From a virus, in IMG/VR virus record IMGVR_UViG_3300007539_000025, positions 1 to 53,816 of that record: DNA of 53,816 nt; one strand, 5' to 3'. Within the stretch, counting starts at the first letter, position 1, and each line of letters starts with the position of its first letter. Both the position numbers and the translations under genes were made by a program. Positions 1 through 7,219 of the stretch are shown here, piece after piece. The notes beneath the pieces are model-generated. The model saw only the letters and a program-made list of their open reading frames with translations. It did no database searches and was not told where the DNA came from.

Positions 1-25
1 CTCTATCCAGCTGAGCTACGGGTGC
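1..25 (-). tRNA. 5' part of a tRNA, cut by the window edge (Arg-like)
   Basis: Read on the minus strand this begins with acceptor strand GCACCCG, then TA, D-stem GCTC and a D-loop containing GG (AGCTGGATA), then GAG. This is a textbook tRNA 5' half. The anticodon and 3' half lie outside the window. The 5' sequence resembles bacterial tRNA-Arg, but the identity cannot be proved from 25 bases. It stands 13 bases beyond the stop of the next minus-strand gene, so it is probably part of the same transcript. Confidence 0.85.
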
Positions 26-287: not shown

Positions 288-708
288 AACCTTCTTCGAT
301 TAATTCGTTTTCAACTTCTTCTTTTTTATCATTGTAATAAAGCTCATACACTTCTTCAATAACTTCTTGAAAATTATAATCATCAAAGTCAAGATCGAAA
401 TGTATTCTCTGACCATCTACCATGGCATCAGGCATTTTTTCCAACCAATCATTATCATAGTAGTATACATCGTCACCGATATAAGGGTTTTTATCATCAT
501 TAGTAGCAACCCATATTTCATAACCATCAGAAGTTGTTTCAGGGTAAAACATTATATCATAACTACCACTCCAGCTTGTATCAATATCAAATTCAAAGTG
601 TTCTTGAATAGCTCTGTACTGATCTTCAGTATCTAGCTCAGACATTTCTACAACACCATGCTCTGATAGTCTTTCGTGTATTAAATCAAATGTTAACTCT
701 TTACTCAT
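268..708 (-). CDS. acidic hypothetical protein (146 aa)
   Basis: Not recognised. The protein is strongly acidic and Tyr-rich; its second half carries runs such as FDLDFDDYNF and ends with a Glu/Lys-rich helix. An all-acidic surface could suit a DNA mimic or an inhibitor of a host nucleic-acid protein, but that is only a suggestion from composition. The start overlaps the stop of the upstream gene by 4 bp (ATGA-type). An opposite-strand reading of 89 codons exists here but looks like a shadow. Confidence 0.7.
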   Translation of the reverse strand: MSKELTFDLIHERLSEHGVVEMSELDTEDQYRAIQEHFEFDIDTSWSGSYDIMFYPETTSDGYEIWVATNDDKNPYIGDDVYYYDNDWLEKMPDAMVDGQRIHFDLDFDDYNFQEVIEEVYELYYNDKKEEVENELIEEGYEWKEK

Positions 709-944
709 GATCTTTCAATTATTTGGTTACCGAATATAAAGCTGTAAGAGCTTAGTTCTGAATTATTTAGGTTAGAGTATGTAATTATGTCGCTAACTTC
801 GCTGATAGTAAGGTCAGACCACAATGTTTTAGACATAAGAGTGTACTTTAATCTTTTAGCTGTGTCGTATTTTCTAGCACTTTCTTGCAATGCTTCTTTT
901 ACTTTTGGAACAAGTCCGTCATAAATGGTTTTAATTTTAGTCAT
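705..944 (-). CDS. hypothetical protein (79 aa)
   Basis: Not recognised. A 79-residue protein, basic at its N-terminus (MTKIKTIYDGLVPKVKEALQ) and predicted mainly helical. It is the first gene after the promoter-like motif at 963-994, with a leader of roughly 20 bases, and has an AAATAATATG start context without Shine-Dalgarno. It is coupled by overlap to the next gene downstream. Confidence 0.65.
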   Translation of the reverse strand: MTKIKTIYDGLVPKVKEALQESARKYDTAKRLKYTLMSKTLWSDLTISEVSDIITYSNLNNSELSSYSFIFGNQIIERS

Positions 945-962
945 ATTATTTTATTTAATTAT

Positions 963-994
963 ATTATCCAATAGTGTTCGTATTATGTATGTAA
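963..994 (-). promoter_or_regulatory. T7-like phage promoter motif, copy 1
   Basis: On the minus strand the site reads TTACA, 5 bases, AATACG, 9 bases (AACACTATT), GGATAAT. Six other copies with identical spacing occur in the window. TAATACGA...CACTAT..GG matches the bacteriophage T7 promoter core closely, with one base less between AATACG and the GG start. It sits just upstream of the 705-944 gene and overlaps the stop codon of the 983-1168 gene. Confidence 0.75.
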
Positions 995-1168
995 CAATTT
1001 CATTAGTGCGCTCTGCACGATGTGATTACAAGCTTCATTGTATTCATCACCTTCTAGTGTATCTACTATTGTACCGTCTACAGCCCAATCAATAGAATCT
1101 ACTATTATTTCACTTAAGTGACTCGCTACAGCTTCTGCAATTGAGTCAAGTTCTTTCATTTTACTCAT
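983..1168 (-). CDS. hypothetical protein (61 aa)
   Basis: Not recognised. A small acidic helical protein (MSKMKELDSIAEAVASHLSE) ending LMKLLHT. The last codons and stop lie inside the promoter motif at 963-994, so the same bases serve both. The start context is TTTAAATAATATG, A/T-rich without Shine-Dalgarno, as in its neighbours. Confidence 0.6.
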   Translation of the reverse strand: MSKMKELDSIAEAVASHLSEIIVDSIDWAVDGTIVDTLEGDEYNEACNHIVQSALMKLLHT

Positions 1169-1169
1169 A

Positions 1170-1310
1170 TTATTTAAATTTATTTGCTACTTCACGTATT
1201 TCTTCTTTATCTTCGCTGTCGAGCCCAGGTGTTTGCTGAGCGTACATGCGTAGTACATAGTGTACAAAAGTACAATCGTTTTCGCTTAGTTTAATTGTTT
1301 TAGTTGCCAT
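1170..1310 (-). CDS. hypothetical protein (46 aa), short gene
   Basis: A 46-residue frame starts MATKTIKLSENDCTF and ends VANKFK. It fills the gap between its neighbours exactly: the start overlaps the end of the upstream gene (stop at 1300) and its stop falls 1-2 bases from the start of the next gene. The length, the MATKT start and the tight packing support a real gene. Function unknown. Confidence 0.6.
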   Translation of the reverse strand: MATKTIKLSENDCTFVHYVLRMYAQQTPGLDSEDKEEIREVANKFK

Positions 1311-1596
1311 ACTCTATATTTTTTTCACTTGTTACCATCCACTCACAGTCACTTACCTTGTGACCTGCACCGTATAAAAACGATTCACAAGATTCTGTGT
1401 CAGGATTCCATTTATTTTCATCAGTACATAATACGCTAATGTCATATCTATATACTTTACCGTCTGTAAAATCTAGCAAGAATATGTATTTAGCTCTTTC
1501 ATCTGCAAACATAATTTCTTTATTATATTGCTCTGCATTTTCTCTGAGCTTTCTTTCTTCTTCCATTTCGTGCCATGCTGTTATAGTATCACTCAT
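1300..1596 (-). CDS. hypothetical protein (98 aa)
   Basis: Not recognised. The N-terminal third (residues 1-35) is a charged helix (EMEEERKLRENAEQYNKE). The rest looks like a small beta domain (FLLDFTDGKVYRYDI) with three Cys near the C-terminus. The start overlaps the end of the upstream gene by 4 bp. No membrane segment. Confidence 0.65.
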   Translation of the reverse strand: MSDTITAWHEMEEERKLRENAEQYNKEIMFADERAKYIFLLDFTDGKVYRYDISVLCTDENKWNPDTESCESFLYGAGHKVSDCEWMVTSEKNIEYGN

Positions 1597-1844
1597 GATT
1601 TTGCTATTTGTTTTAGTTGATTTACTGTATATTGTTTACCTGTTTCTTGCCACATACGGTTGTGAGTGAACTTACGAGCTTTGCTGTACGTCTTCTTGCC
1701 GTCAACTTTGTACCTCATATACTCTTTATCGGTAAGTCCACTACATCTACCGTCATGGACGTGCTTGCGTCTATGCTCCGCTGCACGTAATTTCTTTTGC
1801 TCTTCAACATAGTTGAGCAGATCTCTCATGTTATTAACTACCAT
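1593..1844 (-). CDS. basic hypothetical protein (83 aa)
   Basis: Not recognised. A strongly basic protein rich in Lys, Arg and His (EHRRKHVHDGRC, KKTYSKARKF), which suggests nucleic-acid binding, although no known fold is evident. It overlaps both neighbours by a few bases, so it is probably translated as part of a coupled set. Confidence 0.6.
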   Translation of the reverse strand: MVVNNMRDLLNYVEEQKKLRAAEHRRKHVHDGRCSGLTDKEYMRYKVDGKKTYSKARKFTHNRMWQETGKQYTVNQLKQIAKS

Positions 1845-2038
1845 GGTAACTCTGATTTTTCAATATAAGTTAGACCTTTGTAGTTAAACCACTCGTATTT
1901 GCCGAGTTTACCTTCGTCATCTTTATATTTAACTCCGAATGACGGCGGTAGATCGCCGATTGTATAGCCTTTATACTCAACGCCGTTAAGCTTAGCTAAA
2001 TGAGTGTCATACTTTTTGTAGAATTTAATTGATTGCAT
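1838..2038 (-). CDS. hypothetical protein (66 aa)
   Basis: Not recognised. A 66-residue basic/aromatic protein (YKGYTIGDLPPSFGVKYKDD), probably a small beta fold. It is the first gene downstream of the promoter motif at 2067-2098 and has an AATTTACTATG start context. Confidence 0.6.
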   Translation of the reverse strand: MQSIKFYKKYDTHLAKLNGVEYKGYTIGDLPPSFGVKYKDDEGKLGKYEWFNYKGLTYIEKSELPW

Positions 2039-2066
2039 AGTAAATTATTTAATGTTATTTGATTAT

Positions 2067-2098
2067 ATTATCCAAGAGCTTACGTATTTTGTTTGTAA
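2067..2098 (-). promoter_or_regulatory. T7-like phage promoter motif, copy 2
   Basis: Minus-strand TTACA, 5 bases, AATACG, 9 bases (TAAGCTCTT), GGATAAT, with the same spacing as the other copies. It lies in front of the 1838-2038 gene. Its upstream half encodes the last residues (YKQNT) and stop of the 2080-2460 gene. Confidence 0.75.
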
Positions 2099-2460
2099 TT
2101 TTTTAAGTAGTACTCAACAATAAAAGCTAATCTAGTCATTTCATTGTATATTAGAGCTCTTGCCCATGCAGTACCTTTTCTTACGTAAGTTTTACCATCT
2201 TCACCAAGCCACATCCATCTGTCTTCTCTTTGATACTTAGGATTTAGTTGATAAATTCTGTCACTACTATCACATCTTCTAACGTAACCGCTAGAGTAAG
2301 AACCCATAAGCTCACCTGTTGGACATAAGAATATTCTTGTACCATTTCTAGCTTGTCTTTGTGTAGTAACTTCTTTAATTCCATGCTCAATGAGCATTCT
2401 TCTTGCGAACGAGTCGCATAGCATTTGGCGTTCTTGTTGCCAAGTGTAAGTGTTTTTCAT
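2080..2460 (-). CDS. hypothetical protein (126 aa)
   Basis: Not recognised. The start at 2460 (MKNTYTWQQER) is preferred over an in-frame upstream ATG at 2541. The longer form would run deep into the upstream gene, and 2460 has the AAATACTATG context typical of this block. The protein is basic and aromatic, with a Trp-rich middle (DRWMWLGEDGKTYVRKG) and a helical C-terminus that runs into promoter copy 2. Confidence 0.65.
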   Translation of the reverse strand: MKNTYTWQQERQMLCDSFARRMLIEHGIKEVTTQRQARNGTRIFLCPTGELMGSYSSGYVRRCDSSDRIYQLNPKYQREDRWMWLGEDGKTYVRKGTAWARALIYNEMTRLAFIVEYYLKNYKQNT

Positions 2461-2470
2461 AGTATTTAAT

Positions 2471-2776
2471 TTAGTCGCCTTTCCAGTTATAAGGTGGAGT
2501 TGCGGCGGGTTGGTCATAAAATTTTGCACAAGCGGCATCACTTAGTTTCTGCATTTCGATATAGTGATCTTTATTATCTATTCTATCATCGATTCTTTCT
2601 AGCATATCTTCTTTAGTTGTAGTTGAGAAGCTAGCTAAGTTAACGCCTTCAAGTAGTTTTTCATCTTTACAAGTATAACCACTTGCAGGTTTACCATTCC
2701 AGGTAGTCCATTCTGAGTACGTATACTCTACACCTCGGTAGTTTAGTACGTCTTTGATATTTTCATTTGTAAGCAT
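2471..2776 (-). CDS. hypothetical protein (101 aa)
   Basis: Not recognised. Residues 10-40 look like a small beta domain (YRGVEYTYSEWTTWNGKPAS) and residues 55-90 like an acidic helix. Short gaps on both sides (10 bp each) and the AATAACTATG start fit the rest of the block. Confidence 0.65.
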   Translation of the reverse strand: MLTNENIKDVLNYRGVEYTYSEWTTWNGKPASGYTCKDEKLLEGVNLASFSTTTKEDMLERIDDRIDNKDHYIEMQKLSDAACAKFYDQPAATPPYNWKGD

Positions 2777-2786
2777 AGTTATTAAT

Positions 2787-3002
2787 TTATCTTAGACAAG
2801 TTCCGTAGCCGCGACGCCTTGATGACTTTCTGATTGCTTCAGCTTGCGATTTAGACATAATTTGGATAGAGTTGCCCGTTTTATGATTAGTAATCGGAGC
2901 GCAACCATAAGCTTCAGTAGTTGAACAGCTGACACAAGTACGATAGTTTAACTTGATTCGTACAGGGTGGATAGCGTTACCGCAGCTACATATACTTGCC
3001 AT
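2787..3002 (-). CDS. small Cys-rich zinc-ribbon-like protein (71 aa)
   Basis: The N-terminus has a CSCG pair and then a CVSC pair about 16 residues later, as in compact zinc ribbons such as the TraR/DksA type. The C-terminus is basic (RKSSRRRGYG). A zinc-stabilised nucleic-acid or RNA-polymerase-binding protein is possible, but no family was matched with certainty. It is the first gene downstream of promoter copy 3. Confidence 0.65.
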   Translation of the reverse strand: MASICSCGNAIHPVRIKLNYRTCVSCSTTEAYGCAPITNHKTGNSIQIMSKSQAEAIRKSSRRRGYGTCLR

Positions 3003-3028
3003 AATTATTTTATTTTAGTTACATTATT

Positions 3029-3060
3029 ATTATCCAACAGTGTTCGTATTTTGTTTGTAA
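3029..3060 (-). promoter_or_regulatory. T7-like phage promoter motif, copy 3
   Basis: Minus-strand TTACA, AACAA, AATACG, AACACTGTT, GGATAAT. It lies 27-58 bases upstream of the 2787-3002 start. The whole motif is also the last ten or so codons (YKQNTNTVG) and stop of the 3030-3164 gene: the stop TAA is inside GGATAAT. Confidence 0.78.
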
Positions 3061-3164
3061 TAAACTCTGTTGTAGCGATCATACCACTCATCTTCAATCA
3101 TCATTATTTGTTGACGAGTTAGCTTGATTATCTTATTATGAGAGTGTTTTCTAGTGCGAGCCAT
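3030..3164 (-). CDS. hypothetical protein (44 aa), short gene
   Basis: A 44-residue frame begins MARTRKHSHNKIIKLTRQQ and ends in the promoter motif. The N-terminus is very basic and is followed by an acidic patch (IEDEWYDRYN). It overlaps the end of the 3151-3285 gene by 14 bp in another frame. Likely real because the chain of overlapping small genes is continuous. Function unknown. Confidence 0.55.
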   Translation of the reverse strand: MARTRKHSHNKIIKLTRQQIMMIEDEWYDRYNRVYYKQNTNTVG

Positions 3165-3285
3165 AGTGATATTCAGTATATTCTTCAACAGTGACCCACT
3201 TGTCGATCTCGTTAGCGTATATCATTCCGTCGATGACATGCTCGTCTTCAAAAGACCATAGTTGATTGTGGTTAAACTTTCTCAT
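3151..3285 (-). CDS. hypothetical protein (44 aa), short gene
   Basis: A 44-residue acidic, aromatic frame (MRKFNHNQLWSFEDEHVIDG). Its ends overlap both neighbours by 14 bp, which is the pattern of translational coupling seen throughout this arm. No domain recognised. Confidence 0.55.
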   Translation of the reverse strand: MRKFNHNQLWSFEDEHVIDGMIYANEIDKWVTVEEYTEYHYGSH

Positions 3286-3412
3286 TTGTTTCTTTGTAAA
3301 AGGTTATTCTTTCTTCAACATCTTGTCTAGTTATCTCGCCTTTCATTTGTTTTAAGACGTCACTAGTCATATCTATTTGTTTACCGTTAGGACAAGTTAG
3401 TATAAATTGCAT
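3272..3412 (-). CDS. hypothetical protein (46 aa), short gene
   Basis: A 46-residue frame (MQFILTCPNGKQIDMTSDVL) preceded by TATTAACTATG. The first part looks like a short beta hairpin and the second like a charged helix. It lies directly downstream of the tRNA-like element at 3434-3512, so that RNA is probably processed from, or lies within, the same transcript. Confidence 0.55.
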   Translation of the reverse strand: MQFILTCPNGKQIDMTSDVLKQMKGEITRQDVEERITFYKETNEKV

Positions 3413-3433
3413 AGTTAATAGTTTTATAGTTAG

Positions 3434-3512
3434 AAGTCATTGCAAGAATCGAACTTGCACAAGTGATAGAGTTGGTATTCGTCCATCGTTGTCACTTGCA
3501 ACCGTTATGACT
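3434..3512 (-). ncRNA. tRNA-like RNA, degenerate or non-canonical
   Basis: Read on the minus strand, AGTCAT at the 5' end pairs with ATGACT at the 3' end. Just before the 3' strand is a perfect T-arm: GCAAG, loop TTCGATT, CTTGC. The 79-nt length suits a tRNA. Two mutually exclusive interiors are possible. One is a weak cloverleaf (GTTG/CAAC D-stem, GATGG/CCAAC anticodon stem with one mismatch, loop ACGAATA centred on GAA). The other is a perfect 7-bp CAAGTGA/TCACTTG stem and no D-arm. U8, U33 and the D-loop GG are missing, and CCA is not encoded. It may be a decayed tRNA or a tRNA mimic. Confidence 0.45.
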
Positions 3513-3522
3513 AGTTGTATTT

Positions 3523-3696
3523 TTAAATTGTTACACCATTGAAGATTACTTGATAAGTCATGAAGATAATACCTGTTATAGCTAGAGGAGCTAAGAAACC
3601 GAAAGCAAATACTTCAGCGATTACTTCAAAGATTGGTTTAGATTTTACATAGTTTTGCACTGCAGGAATAAATCCTCTGAATTTAAATTTAGACAT
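3523..3696 (-). CDS. small membrane protein (57 aa)
   Basis: A 57-residue frame with a basic N-terminus (MSKFKFRGFIPAVQNYVKSK) followed by one long hydrophobic segment at about residues 27-52. Probably a single-span inner-membrane protein with the basic end inside. It is the first gene after promoter copy 4 and has a CAAATAACTATG start. Such early membrane peptides often act on host envelope or exclusion functions, but nothing here identifies a target. Confidence 0.6.
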   Translation of the reverse strand: MSKFKFRGFIPAVQNYVKSKPIFEVIAEVFAFGFLAPLAITGIIFMTYQVIFNGVTI

Positions 3697-3723
3697 AGTT
3701 ATTTGATTTTATTAGTTATTATT

Positions 3724-3755
3724 ATTATCCATCTACTTACGTATTATATTTGTAT
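3724..3755 (-). promoter_or_regulatory. T7-like phage promoter motif, copy 4
   Basis: Minus-strand ATACA (one change from TTACA), 5 bases, AATACG, 9 bases (TAAGTAGAT), GGATAAT. It stands just downstream of the 3755-3874 stop and 28 bases before the start of the 3523-3696 gene. Confidence 0.7.
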
Positions 3756-3874
3756 TAGTAGAAGTCGTAGTATATATTTAGAACTTCATTTCTTTGTTCT
3801 TTAGTTAGTAAGTTCCAGTGCTTTCCGAACTTGCGAAAGCTAATTTTTAGTAAATATGTATTCATGTGAGCCAT
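3755..3874 (-). CDS. hypothetical protein (39 aa), short gene
   Basis: A 39-residue frame (MAHMNTYLLKISFRKFGKHW) ending IYYDFY. Basic and aromatic. The start context ATATAACTATG matches its neighbours, and the stop abuts promoter copy 4. Could be a chance frame, but size and spacing match the rest of the array. Confidence 0.5.
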   Translation of the reverse strand: MAHMNTYLLKISFRKFGKHWNLLTKEQRNEVLNIYYDFY

Positions 3875-3911
3875 AGTTATATATTTTAATTGATTAGACA
3901 AAAGTTTTAAT

Positions 3912-3969
3912 AGTTGTCACGAGTGGAATCGAACCACTATTAACCATTGTGACAGGTTTCTGTTCAACT
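3912..3969 (-). ncRNA. tRNA-like minihelix (acceptor plus T-arm)
   Basis: On the minus strand TGTCAC pairs with GTGACA. The space between holds only a 9-10 nt linker and a perfect T-arm: AGTGG, loop TTCGATT, CCACT. There is no room for D and anticodon arms inside this acceptor stem. An outer AGTTG/CAACT pair extends the hairpin. The layout (acceptor strands meeting a consensus T-loop) parallels the element at 3434-3512. It could be a tRNA remnant, a processing signal or a tRNA-mimic RNA. Confidence 0.4.
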
Positions 3970-4023
3970 GTATTTATACTCGAGAGAACACATTTCAACG
4001 CCGAGTGAAACAAAGAGTAGTTA

Positions 4024-4254
4024 TTAGACTACTTCTTTGTCTCTTAGTACAACTGGAACACTTGTTGAAGAAGTATAGCTTTTGTACTTTTGAAAGCAAG
4101 GCATAGACTCTAGTTTATCTTTCATGATTTCATATACTTTATCATGATTGTAAGTGAATGTTTTGCCTGACTTGAATTCTACATTGATAGTAGAGTTTTG
4201 ACCGATTAAAGATTTTCTGATAACAAATCTTTTTGAAGTAATTGAATTTGACAT
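4024..4254 (-). CDS. hypothetical protein (76 aa)
   Basis: Not recognised. A small basic protein with a beta-rich first half (VEFKSGKTFTYNHDKVYEIM) and a Ser/Thr-rich tail. First gene transcribed leftward from the control region, downstream of promoter copies 5 and 6, with a TAATAACTATG start. Position suggests an early product. Confidence 0.65.
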   Translation of the reverse strand: MSNSITSKRFVIRKSLIGQNSTINVEFKSGKTFTYNHDKVYEIMKDKLESMPCFQKYKSYTSSTSVPVVLRDKEVV

Positions 4255-4287
4255 AGTTATTATATTTAAGTTATTATTTACATTTAT

Positions 4288-4319
4288 ATTATCCGTTTGC
4301 TGTCGTATTAGCTTTGTAA
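4288..4319 (-). promoter_or_regulatory. T7-like phage promoter motif, copy 5
   Basis: Minus-strand TTACA, AAGCT, AATACG, ACAGCAAAC, GGATAAT, 34 bases upstream of the 4024-4254 start. TAATACGAC is identical to the first nine bases of the T7 class III promoter core. Confidence 0.78.
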
Positions 4320-4426
4320 TAAAAGTTAGTGTTTTGTTTACTTGTTATTATTTGTTAAGTATTGTTCCGCACTTTCTCTCAATATCTAATTTACTTTTAG
4401 TTTTATTAGTTATTACTTACAATATA

Positions 4427-4458
4427 ATTATCCATGTGTAGTCGTATTAAGTCTGTAA
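4427..4458 (-). promoter_or_regulatory. T7-like phage promoter motif, copy 6
   Basis: Minus-strand TTACA, GACTT, AATACG, ACTACACAT, GGATAAT. The core TAATACGACT-ACAC-ATGG is the closest in the window to the T7 promoter. It drives leftward transcription into a 170-nt leader before the first small gene, so it either doubles copy 5 or makes a leader RNA. Confidence 0.8.
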
Positions 4459-4513
4459 AATAAATGTGAAATAAAATAATAAAATAAAAATATAGTAAAT
4501 AAAAATATATAGG

Positions 4514-4545
4514 TTACATGGGAAATACGAGGCGAAGCGGATAAT
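4514..4545 (+). promoter_or_regulatory. T7-like phage promoter motif, copy 7 (rightward)
   Basis: Plus-strand TTACA, TGGGA, AATACG, AGGCGAAGC, GGATAAT, with spacing identical to the six minus-strand copies. It is the only rightward copy found and stands at the head of the plus-strand genes, about 190 bases before the first start codon. It probably serves the chaperonin and virion block. The transcript would begin in the GG of GGATAAT. Confidence 0.78.
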
Positions 4546-4648
4546 GCAGGTGGGGCCCGCTTAAGCAAATGCGTTTTCGTTTTAGTGCAGGTGCGGTAAG
4601 GGGAGGGGGCAACACTATACCTCTAAATATCTAACAAATTTAAAAATA

Positions 4649-4691
4649 TGACAGTAGCCTATAAAGTTATATAAGTAACTACCTATTGTCA
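4649..4691 (+). promoter_or_regulatory. hairpin in the rightward leader
   Basis: TGACAGTAG pairs with CTATTGTCA (9 pairs, one G-U), and inside it AGTTA pairs with TAACT around the loop TATAAG. It lies in the transcript made from promoter copy 7, 38 bases before the first start codon. It is AT-rich and has no U-run, so a processing, stability or operator role is more likely than termination. Confidence 0.5.
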
Positions 4692-4729
4692 CACTTTAAA
4701 ATTTAAATAAACCATGTAATTATTCTGGT

Positions 4730-4948
4730 ATGGCAATAGCGAACTCACAAGGATTATCAAGAACAGCACTAGCAGCAAAGCGAGCTAGAGACTTAGCAGC
4801 AGCTAAAACACCTAAGCGTAGAGCTAGGAAAGCTGAAAATCAACGCATCGGACAAAGATCTGATAGCGATCTGCATCATGATGGTAGCGCTGTTAGAAGA
4901 GTATCTATAGCCTATAATAGAGCTACTCACACAAGAGGAGAAGTATGA
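4730..4948 (+). CDS. small basic protein (72 aa)
   Basis: Not recognised by family. Very basic and Ala-rich (residues 12-36: AALAAKRARDLAAAKTPKRR), with a helix that would be positively charged on one face, suggesting DNA or RNA binding or a minor virion protein. First gene of the rightward block. It ends with ATGA overlap with the next gene. Confidence 0.65.
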   Translation: MAIANSQGLSRTALAAKRARDLAAAKTPKRRARKAENQRIGQRSDSDLHHDGSAVRRVSIAYNRATHTRGEV

Positions 4949-5052
4949 TTTACGACCTATTATTAATGTTCGGCACGGTAGCAGCTAGTTTTTTATTCCA
5001 TGTTGTAGTGTACGAATCAACCTTTGATAAACCAAATAAAAAGCGTAAATAA
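4945..5052 (+). CDS. small membrane protein (35 aa), short gene
   Basis: A 35-residue frame starts MIYDLLLMFGTVAASFLFHV, one hydrophobic span, and ends in a basic tail (PNKKRK). It overlaps the upstream stop by 4 bp. It is unusual here in having a clear Shine-Dalgarno (AGAGGAG) 5 bases before the ATG, which supports translation. Function unknown. Confidence 0.6.
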   Translation: MIYDLLLMFGTVAASFLFHVVVYESTFDKPNKKRK

Positions 5053-5096
5053 GATCCGCTTAACCAAGTATCTTAAAAACCTTAAACCTTAATAAA

Positions 5097-5387
5097 ATGA
5101 CTTATTTTTATTACAAAACAAATACCTGGAACAACTCCAATACGGGTATTACCGAGGAAACCATTAACTATTGGAAACACCTTGTAGACAAAAAGAATTG
5201 GAGAATTACACAATTACCTAACGGTTTCTACCAGACAGAAGTAAAAGATCAAGATGATCAATGGTCTGATGTAACTAGACGAGAAACTATTGATGGCGCT
5301 GAAGCAGCAATTGATGGTAGCATCGAACATTACAATAAGAAGCTAGACTTTGTAAAAGGTCCTAAGGTAGTTAAAACATTTGAATAG
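5097..5387 (+). CDS. hypothetical protein (96 aa)
   Basis: Not recognised. A 96-residue acidic protein with many Asn, Asp and Trp residues in its first two thirds (WKHLVDKKNWRITQLPNGFY), probably a compact alpha/beta fold. It sits 19 bp ahead of groEL and is likely co-transcribed with it. No signal peptide or membrane segment. Confidence 0.65.
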   Translation: MTYFYYKTNTWNNSNTGITEETINYWKHLVDKKNWRITQLPNGFYQTEVKDQDDQWSDVTRRETIDGAEAAIDGSIEHYNKKLDFVKGPKVVKTFE

Positions 5388-5406
5388 GAAATAAAAATTT
5401 AATTTA

Positions 5407-6972
5407 ATGGAATATAATAACCCTAGCGAAATTGTCAAGGATTTACACTTTGGTAATGACGCAAAGAACAAGATAGTGGCTGGTGTATCAAAACTAGCCG
5501 AAGCAGTTAAGTCTACCTTGGGTGCATCAGGTAGATGTGTAGTTTACGAGGATGCCCTCGGAAAACCGGTGATAACAAAAGATGGTGTAACCGTTGCGGA
5601 AAGCGTAGTCTTACTTGATCCGGTTGAAAACATAGGTGCTACATTAATTAAAGAAGCTGCAAGGAACACAGTGAAAGAAGCAGGTGACGGTACTACTACA
5701 GCTACCGTCCTTGCTGAATCACTATTGAAATATGCTGAAGAAGCGGAAGGAACTCCTAGAGAAAAGAAAAACGGTATAAACAATTATGCCAATAAAGTAT
5801 ATGATTATTTAAATTCTATAACAATACCAGTAGAAGGTGATATGTTAGAGAACGTAGCAAATATATCATGTAATAACGATAAGGAGTTAGGTTATATCAT
5901 ATCTGAGGCTTACAATAAAGTAGGTAAATCAGGTGTGGTTTTGATGGAAGAGTCTGAGTCTGACCAAACGTACGTTGATATTGTAGATGGAGTACAAATA
6001 GAGTCTGGCCTTAAATCACCACACCTTATTACTAATAAAGATAAACAGATATGTGAACTAGATAACCCATATATATTAATAGTATCTAGTAAAATACCTA
6101 ATATAAGAAAAATACAACCTATATTAGAACATGTAATTAAAACTAAAAGATCTTTACTTATAGTTGCTGATGTTGAAACTCAAGTATCAGCTACACTTTT
6201 AATGAATAAAGTTAAAGGTAATATAAAAGTAAACTATATAGATCTACCTGGTTTTGGTCCTACGCGTCAAGAAACAACAGAAGACTTAGCACTTTTAACT
6301 GGTGCAATTGTTATGAATGAAGATCTTGGCGATGATTTAGACTTAATAAAACCAGATGTTTTAGGTGAAGCTGTAAAATGTATTACAGATGACAAGACTA
6401 CAGTACTAACTATAGGTGATACAGCTGGTATTTTAACAGAAAGAATAGAAGAAGTACAAAAGCTGATCAAAAAAGAGAAAAACCAGTACATAAAACGTAG
6501 ACTAGAGCAAAGAATAGCTATGTTAAGTGGTACTGTTGGTGTAGTTAAGGTAGGTGCAAACTCAAAAATTGAGTTAAAAGAGAAAAAAGACCGAGTAGAA
6601 GATGCTATTTACGCTGTAAAAGCAGCTTTGAAAGAAGGTATTGTGCCAGGAGGTGGTAGAGCACTTGCAGAAGCGGCTGAAAATTGTGAGCCACTTGATG
6701 AATTTGAGTTAATTTTGCAAAAAACGCTGTTTTCACCGTTTAAAACTATACTAAAAAACGCAGATATGTCTAATCTTACAACAGAAGGCATCGAAAAAGG
6801 TTATGGATATGACGTAACTTGCGGTTGTATTAAGAATTTAATCGAAACTGGTATTATAGATCCAGTTTTAGTAACAAAATCTGCATTAAAAAACGCTATT
6901 TCAGTAGTTTCTACTATAATTTCAGCAAATTGTGTAATATCTAATATAAGAATAGACAATGCAAGCAATTAA
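5407..6972 (+). CDS. groEL: phage chaperonin GroEL
   Basis: ATP-driven folding chamber subunit, expected to help fold abundant virion proteins. Visible GroEL hallmarks are KDGVTVAE (residues 58-65), the ATP loop [10 protein letters not shown] (93-102), VEDAIYAV with the catalytic-type Asp, [14 protein letters not shown], and [13 protein letters not shown] near the end. All nucleotide-contact Asp positions appear conserved, so it should be active. At 521 aa it is slightly shorter than bacterial GroEL (about 545) and lacks the Gly-Gly-Met C-terminal tail. The next gene, groES, overlaps it by 14 bp; in bacteria the order is usually reversed. The first 350 bases have much higher GC than the rest of the gene (see findings). 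Confidence 0.97.
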
Positions 6973-7219
6973 TTATTATATTATAGTAGAAAAAATAAAA
7001 GTCGAGCCGAAGAAAGTAGGTGGACTTATACTAACTGACAAAGTTGATGACGAAAACAGGTATATTAAAGCTAAAATTATTTCTATTGGCAATTTAGTAC
7101 CTGATAGTGTAAAAAAAGGTGATGTTGTTTATTTTGATAGACACGCTGGTCATGGTATAACGTTTAATGAAACTAGATACCATGTTATACAAGTTGGCGA
7201 TGTCGTACTAGTGGCATGA
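6959..7219 (+). CDS. groES: co-chaperonin GroES
   Basis: The lid of the chaperonin. At 86 aa it is slightly short of typical GroES (about 95). It carries a mobile-loop-type sequence KKVGGLILTD (residues 18-27), the family signature of Gly-Gly followed by hydrophobics, and later KKGDVVYFDR, matching the GD(V/I)V strand of GroES. It lacks the long roof loop. It starts inside the end of groEL and overlaps the next gene by 4 bp, so it is translationally coupled to both. A phage-matched lid may suit larger substrates, as with T4 gp31, but that is inference. Confidence 0.9.
   Translation: MQAINYYIIVEKIKVEPKKVGGLILTDKVDDENRYIKAKIISIGNLVPDSVKKGDVVYFDRHAGHGITFNETRYHVIQVGDVVLVA

What the first reader, a model, noticed from the sequence alone, without database searches (positions are those of the whole stretch)
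963..4545. Seven copies of a fixed-spacing T7-like promoter, pointing away from a central control region
Six minus-strand copies (963, 2067, 3029, 3724, 4288, 4427) and one plus-strand copy (4514) share TTACA-N5-AATACG-N9-GGATAAT with no change in spacing (one copy has ATACA). AATACG followed about ten bases later by GG is the core of T7-family single-subunit polymerase promoters; copy 6 reads TAATACGACT then ACAC then ATGG. Five of the six minus-strand copies stand directly before a gene start, and copies 6 and 7 form a divergent pair. The motif does not match the Bacteroidota housekeeping promoter (TTTG / TAnnTTTG). The TTACA box ten bases upstream of the core is not part of the T7 promoter and may be an extra recognition element. 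I infer that a T7-type polymerase is encoded outside the window, in a phage whose virion genes do not look T7-like.
Basis: partly seen in the sequence, partly recalled or inferred. Interest (0 to 1): 0.85.

Follow-up and report, generated by a model that had tools for sequence, protein, structure and literature searches.

The report
Phage-sigma promoters in marine Flavobacteriia phages
The repeated sequence is a real set of promoters, but they are most likely read by a sigma factor that the phage makes to redirect its host's RNA polymerase, not by a T7-type polymerase; the same sigma gene and promoters recur across a large, uncultured group of marine phages.

Summary
In detail: seven exact copies at the stated coordinates, against 0.14 matches expected by chance even with three mismatches allowed. 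The T7 reading is not supported. The window is a 53.8 kb fragment of a roughly 61-65 kb podovirus genome. Arrays of the motif recur in relatives (455 distinct sites). No T7-type polymerase (PF00940) was found in 28 relatives, while the T7 control was positive. Instead, 26 of 28 motif-bearing contigs encode a ~250-aa sigma-70-family factor, in an operon behind a helix-turn-helix protein. The two exceptions are cut off at the array, as the window is. Nineteen long records of sister phages lack both motif and sigma. The logo is a sigma-type promoter: GATAAT at -12 to -7, a near-invariant purine at +1, and a conserved 17-bp box from -38 to -22 centred at -30. In 50 of 383 sites the ATG lies exactly at +1, so many mRNAs are predicted to be leaderless. 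One relative with a variant motif has a copy with +1 on the ATG of sigma itself. Isolated perfect copies on three Flavobacteriales chromosomes are unexplained. No transcript data exist.

The parts
963..994 (-). phage-sigma promoter 1; -10 GATAAT 963-968, upstream box 978-994, predicted +1 at 956; gene 705-944 starts 12 nt downstream
   Evidence: 41.4 bits
2067..2098 (-). phage-sigma promoter 2; predicted +1 at 2060; gene 1838-2038 follows
   Evidence: 40.2 bits
3029..3060 (-). phage-sigma promoter 3; predicted +1 at 3022 (GTAA class); gene 2787-3002 follows
   Evidence: 51.1 bits
3724..3755 (-). phage-sigma promoter 4 (ATACA); predicted +1 at 3717; gene 3523-3696 follows
   Evidence: 31.7 bits
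4288..4319 (-). phage-sigma promoter 5; predicted +1 at 4281 (GTAA class); gene 4024-4254 follows
   Evidence: 46.6 bits
4427..4458 (-). phage-sigma promoter 6, first of the array; predicted +1 at 4420 (GTAA class); tandem with promoter 5
   Evidence: 36.5 bits
4514..4545 (+). divergent copy 7 facing the structural-gene operon; atypical downstream part; predicted +1 at 4552 (G of TGGGGCCC); overlaps another conserved late-leader element
   Evidence: (11.1 bits)
705..944 (-). small gene served by promoter 1; homologues in the arrays of relatives
1838..2038 (-). small gene served by promoter 2
2787..3002 (-). small Cys-containing gene served by promoter 3
3523..3696 (-). small gene served by promoter 4
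4024..4254 (-). small gene served by promoters 5 and 6; conserved near the start of this arm in relatives
4649..4691 (.). 43-bp imperfect dyad TGACAgTAGCC...CTAtTGTCA in the late leader; a related dyad overlies the start of the HTH gene of the HTH-sigma operon in relatives
4730..4948 (+). first gene of the rightward operon that leads into the structural genes

Best explanation
The seven sites are promoters for host core RNA polymerase carrying a phage-encoded sigma-70-family factor. The sigma gene is predicted to lie a few kb beyond the left end of this window. It is cotranscribed behind a helix-turn-helix protein, at the downstream end of the same leftward arm that the promoters serve. Sigma region 2 would open the DNA at GATAAT (-12 to -7). 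The 17-bp box at -38 to -22 would be read either by sigma region 4 (its TACAAA half) plus a partner, or by an activator in the position of the T4 MotA box. RNA would start at the purine 7 nt after GATAAT. In many relatives this is the A of the start codon, which would give leaderless mRNA; the window's own copies have 12-27 nt leaders. The factor would replace the host sigma-ABfr specificity (TTTG / TAnnTTTG) for the phage's small-gene and replication arm, and would reinforce its own operon. Shown: the motif, its conservation, the sigma family membership, the co-occurrence, the geometry and the lack of a detectable T7-type polymerase. Inferred: binding, start sites, the leaderless state, autoregulation, and that this particular phage has the gene.
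For: Sigma family: Pfam Sigma70_r4 in 23 of 26 and Sigma70_r2 in 22 of 26 orthologues; PHROG 351 'RNA polymerase sigma factor' E 2e-25; profile search finds FliA 1rp3 at E 8e-11; fold search finds sigma chains. Co-occurrence: sigma in 26 of 28 motif-bearing contigs; both exceptions end at the array; motif and sigma both absent from 17 long sister contigs and 2 named phages. G048 has the sigma but no standard motif, and carries a variant array of the same architecture, one copy having +1 exactly on the sigma ATG. Geometry: position 39 is a purine in 380 of 383 sites, preceded by a pyrimidine in 83% of 455; ORF ATG exactly at +1 in 50 sites, at most 2 one nt either side. Every array site in ten relatives is on the sigma strand, apart from one divergent copy in G026. 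Specificity: 2 of 400 Flavobacteriaceae genomes match at up to 2 mismatches, both already known. Synteny: in G001 the sigma lies beyond the homologue of the window's leftmost gene.
Against: No transcript or binding data. The sigma gene is not in the window itself, which is truncated. The HTH protein co-occurs just as strictly, so genome data cannot tell which of the two proteins reads the -38 to -22 box. A 17-bp upstream box reaching -22 is unusual for a sigma factor acting alone. The AlphaFold model of sigma is only moderate (pLDDT 72, pTM 0.48). Part of the ATG-at-+1 excess may be shared ancestry of orthologous sites.
Confidence: 0.85

Rival explanations
1. T7-type promoters read by a phage single-subunit RNA polymerase, starting at the GG of GGATAAT.
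For: AATACG and a GG about ten bases on resemble the T7 core; copy 6 reads TAATACGACT.
Against: No PF00940 in the window or in 28 relatives of 52-71 kb, with T7 as working control; spacing is one base short; the positions between AATACGA and TGG are largely unconserved, while the conserved AT-rich stretch lies after GG; purine and ATG peaks at position 39; a sigma gene tracks the motif.
Confidence: 0.03
2. A phage activator, the HTH protein of the same operon, reads the -38 to -22 box and recruits polymerase carrying either the phage or the host sigma, in the manner of T4 MotA. (With the phage sigma this is a refinement of the best explanation, not an alternative to it.)
For: The HTH gene co-occurs with sigma in the same operon; the box is centred at -30 like the MotA box (PMC2988021) and is longer than a normal -35 element.
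Against: No MotA-like sequence or fold match. A dyad over the HTH gene's own start codon in nearly all of 31 loci is an equally good candidate target for that protein. The host -7 element TAnnTTTG is absent, so the host sigma alone would have no -7 site.
Confidence: 0.3
3. The sites are promoters of a host alternative sigma factor that the phage exploits.
For: Isolated perfect copies exist on three Flavobacteriales chromosomes.
Against: At up to 2 mismatches only 2 of 400 Flavobacteriaceae genomes carry the motif, both already known from the exact scan; the genomes with chromosomal copies have no close relative of the phage sigma, only weak hits or none.
Confidence: 0.04
4. Repressor or activator operators, or replication iterons, rather than promoters.
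For: Many near-identical copies at fixed spacing within a few kb.
Against: Fixed orientation with respect to genes, 70 of 98 sites within 100 nt of a same-strand ORF start, a -10-like hexamer at canonical distance from a purine and from ATG.
Confidence: 0.05

Closest known systems
Phage-encoded sigma factors directing host core polymerase to phage promoters (SPO1 gp28 and gp33/34, T4 gp55: from memory; PHROG 351 tested here)
   Same: A phage sigma-70-family protein and a dedicated promoter class that is not a host class.
   Different: This sigma has no close relative among 50,697 named phage records; its promoter consensus, the 17-bp upstream box and the frequent +1 = ATG arrangement are its own; the hosts are inferred to be Flavobacteriia.
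T4 middle promoters (MotA box centred at -30 plus a -10; sigma appropriation; PMC2988021)
   Same: A -10 hexamer at -12 to -7 and a phage box centred at -30.
   Different: The box is a different 17-bp sequence; the phage supplies a sigma; no MotA homologue was found and AsiA was not sought.
T7 promoter and RNA polymerase
   Same: AATACG followed by GG at almost the same distance.
   Different: No polymerase gene found, spacing one base short, middle unconserved, start site predicted 12-13 nt further downstream.
Host sigma-ABfr promoters (-33 TTTG / -7 TAnnTTTG; PMC6847099)
   Same: Presumably the same core polymerase.
   Different: Neither element is in the motif; no host-type promoter was found in the window's intergenic space.

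Membership tests
T7-type single-subunit polymerase promoter system | single-subunit RNA polymerase (PF00940) encoded by the phage | tested here: not met
   0 of 28 relatives and not in the window; T7 positive control E 1e-109
T7-type single-subunit polymerase promoter system | conserved -17 to +6 block with start at GG | tested here: not met
   columns between AATACGA and TGG largely unconserved; AATACG to GG spacing 9 not 10; purine peak at position 39
Phage sigma-factor regulon | phage-encoded sigma-70-family protein with regions 2 and 4 | tested here: met
   in relatives; not testable in the window, which ends before the gene
Phage sigma-factor regulon | -10 element 6 nt upstream of a purine start | tested here: met
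   GATAAT at -12 to -7; purine at +1 in 380 of 383 sites; by sequence only, no mapped start sites
Phage sigma-factor regulon | -35 element at canonical distance | tested here: inconclusive
   TACAAA at -37 to -32 fits, but is part of a 17-bp box reaching -22
Phage sigma-factor regulon | sigma binds core polymerase and initiates at these sites | not testable with these tools
   needs biochemistry
T4-like sigma appropriation | activator box centred at -30 replacing the -35 element | tested here: inconclusive
   position fits (PMC2988021), reader unknown
T4-like sigma appropriation | MotA homologue | tested here: not met
   HTH protein has no MotA hit by profile or fold
T4-like sigma appropriation | AsiA homologue | not tested
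   not searched
Bacteroidota sigma-ABfr promoter | TTTG at -33 and TAnnTTTG at -7 | tested here: not met
   absent from the motif; no intergenic match in the window

The most novel reading that the evidence does not exclude
Some Flavobacteriales carry single perfect copies of this phage promoter on their chromosomes as tripwires: one is upstream of a TerB-domain gene beside parA-parB, others upstream of a small secreted-protein gene that is duplicated in one genome. The incoming phage sigma would then switch on host genes that act against, or in response to, infection.
Probability: 0.15. Interest if true: 0.85.

Novelty: new variant of a known kind. Interest (0 to 1): 0.62.

Why it matters
It offers a phage-encoded sigma/promoter pair for Bacteroidota, a phylum whose promoters are unlike those of E. 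coli. The promoter matrix is specific enough to annotate such phages, and possibly host genes that respond to them. It predicts leaderless phage mRNAs in hosts whose own transcripts are mostly leadered (PMC6847099). All of this can be tested with one sigma protein and one core polymerase.

Tried and rejected
T7 polymerase (PF00940) searched in window and 28 relatives: none (control). Giant 2491-aa virion protein as a virion RNA polymerase: no Pfam polymerase hit; a crude motif search for D-x-GD gave one string, DFFGD, of no evident meaning. Host-type promoters: total matches were at or below the reversed-sequence control in most sigma-bearing genomes, and none lay in the window's intergenic space. 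Faecal 'phage' records hit by the sigma: the three read were bacterial scaffolds. An apparent DNA match of the control region to MT837166 was my misreading of query coordinates; it is GroEL coding sequence. Rfam: no family in the window. HTH protein: weak HTH hits only; no solved relative by sequence or fold. Reading the GTAA class as start-stop codons (ATGTAA) was rejected because the first bases vary (TTGTAA, ACGTAA, TCGTAA). Trying to tell sigma from HTH as reader by promoter-protein covariation was uninformative: the core is almost invariant over sigmas 44-76% identical.
Full report
What was checked. Shuffled sequence gives on average 0.14 matches at up to three mismatches. The window is the whole of a linear virus record of 53,816 bases. 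Its terminase, portal and capsid belong to a podovirus group whose named relatives are Caudoviricetes sp. MW202828 (64% in the terminase) and Flavobacterium, Cellulophaga, Tenacibaculum and Maribacter phages (below 60%; the elemo group about 45%). It is therefore a phage inferred to infect Flavobacteriia. Complete relatives are about 61-65 kb, judged from repeated ends, so roughly 10 kb is missing here.

The motif in relatives. Ten complete or nearly complete relatives carry 5 to 22 sites each. In all, 455 distinct sites give the logo tTACAAAcTAAATACGA-N7-tGGATAATAtaaatR. A matrix from these sites finds nothing at 8 bits or more in six reversed genomes. In the relatives, array sites lie on one strand, with an occasional divergent copy facing the structural operon, as at window 4514. 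Of 98 sites in eleven genomes, 70 have a same-strand ORF start within 100 nt.

Why not T7. The polymerase family PF00940 was not found in the window or in 28 relatives of 52-71 kb, while the same search finds it in T7. The T7 core has ten bases between AATACG and GG (from memory); here there are nine. The bases in between are largely unconserved. The AT-rich conserved stretch lies downstream of GG.

Why a sigma promoter. If GATAAT is placed at -12 to -7, position 39 becomes +1. That position is a purine in 380 of 383 sites, in DNA where T alone is about 30%. It is preceded by a pyrimidine in 83% of the 455 sites. The first ATG of an ORF of at least 40 codons falls exactly on it in 50 sites; one nt to either side there are 0 and 2, two nt to either side 5 and 14. 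A further 37 sites have such an ATG 15 nt upstream, inside the promoter (ATGGATAAT); this is in frame with +1, and 87 of the 455 sites have an ATG at +1. These would be leaderless mRNAs, whereas Flavobacterium johnsoniae transcripts are mostly leadered (PMC6847099). Another large class (94 of the 383) starts GTAA and carries a leader. The window's own sites have leaders of 12-27 nt by this rule.

In the relatives, on the array strand and generally beyond most of its promoters, two overlapping or adjacent genes follow: a ~206-aa helix-turn-helix protein and a ~250-aa protein. The latter matches Pfam sigma-70 region 4 in 23 and region 2 in 22 of 26 orthologues, PHROG 351 RNA polymerase sigma factor, FliA and other sigma factors in the PDB by sequence, and sigma chains by fold, though the model is only of moderate confidence. 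It is present in 26 of 28 motif-bearing contigs. The two others, G021 and G023, stop at the array, so the region is missing. Nineteen long records of the sister groups (17 IMG/VR contigs and 2 named phages, one contig probably identical to a named phage) lack both the motif and the sigma. One sigma-bearing contig, G048, lacks the standard motif but has a variant array (TGC..AATAAAAACGa-N7-..GATAAT); one copy has its +1 exactly on the ATG of the sigma gene, which points to positive autoregulation. In the close relative G001, homologues of the window's leftmost genes are followed by the sigma gene about 3.5 kb further on; the window's right end lies on the other side of the missing stretch.

What remains open. 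The 17-bp box at -38 to -22 is longer than a -35 element and is centred at -30, the position of the MotA box in T4 middle promoters (PMC2988021). The HTH protein could read it; but the same genomes have a dyad, TGTGACAnnAGCC...GGCTnnTGTCACA, lying over the HTH gene's own start in nearly all of 31 loci, and a related dyad in the late leader (window 4649-4691). This dyad is an equally good candidate target for that protein. I could not separate these possibilities.

Host copies. A scan of 257 Gb of bacterial and archaeal genomes with a strict 24-base form of the motif gave five hits, against fewer than 0.03 expected from base composition. Two are phage contigs by their gene content. Three are single sites on contigs of Flavobacteriales assemblies with chromosomal genes around them: one before a TerB-domain gene beside parA-parB-dapB-lepB, two before a small secreted-protein gene, one of these genomes having a second, one-mismatch copy. 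These genomes have no phage sigma, and only the two known genomes matched among 400 Flavobacteriaceae at up to two mismatches. They may be captured phage DNA or genes that respond to the phage; neither is shown.

Verdict. The T7 reading is wrong in mechanism but right that a phage-specific reader is encoded outside the window. The best reading is a phage sigma regulon, a new variant of a known kind, with an unusual upstream box and frequent predicted leaderless starts. No experiment was available, so binding, start sites and timing are inferred.

Noticed in passing
window 4649-4691; relatives e.g. L205:2167-2209, L239:13037-13079, L081:4649-4690: A conserved ~43-bp dyad (half-site TGTGACAnnAGCC) sits over the start codon of the HTH gene of the HTH-sigma operon in nearly all of 31 loci, and a related dyad sits in the leader of the late operon. 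By eye the two halves vary independently, which suggests a DNA operator rather than an RNA hairpin. It could couple the sigma operon with the late operon.
   Followed up: partly
window 4540-4730: The late-operon leader begins with a conserved element around AcAGGTGGGGCCCG followed by GGGGCAACACTATACC...TTAGATAT; in L133, L163, L171 and L192 the GGTGGGGCCCG part occurs without the array motif upstream, so late genes may have their own promoter class.
   Followed up: partly
L377:323-353, L378:150-180, L379:4274-4304, L386: Single perfect or near-perfect copies of the phage promoter on Flavobacteriales chromosomes, upstream of a TerB-domain gene and of a small secreted-protein gene; the genomes lack the phage sigma.
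   Followed up: partly
L367:1124-5722 (G048): A relative with a divergent promoter consensus (TGC..AAAAACGA..AGATAAT) and its own sigma; a natural pair for testing which residues set specificity.
   Followed up: partly
G008 3078-4444 and 64292-65658; G004 786-6500 and 64550-70398: Two contigs carry two copies of the array and adjoining genes near both ends; in G008 the HTH and sigma copies differ by 23-28% in protein sequence, more than strain variation, which suggests a chimeric assembly or a real duplication.
   Followed up: no
window 1-25: The left edge reads like the 5' half of a tRNA on the minus strand (GCACCCGTAGCTCAGCTGGATAGAG), cut by the contig end; ARAGORN reports no tRNA.
   Followed up: no
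window 5407-7219: The phage carries a GroEL gene and apparently a GroES gene directly after the control region, as the elemo and MW202828 relatives do elsewhere in their maps.
   Followed up: no
G022 (L210-L213), G006 (L371): The sigma gene is broken by frameshifts or stops in these two contigs, and in G022 also the HTH, portal and terminase genes, probably sequencing errors; counts from them should be used with care.
   Followed up: no
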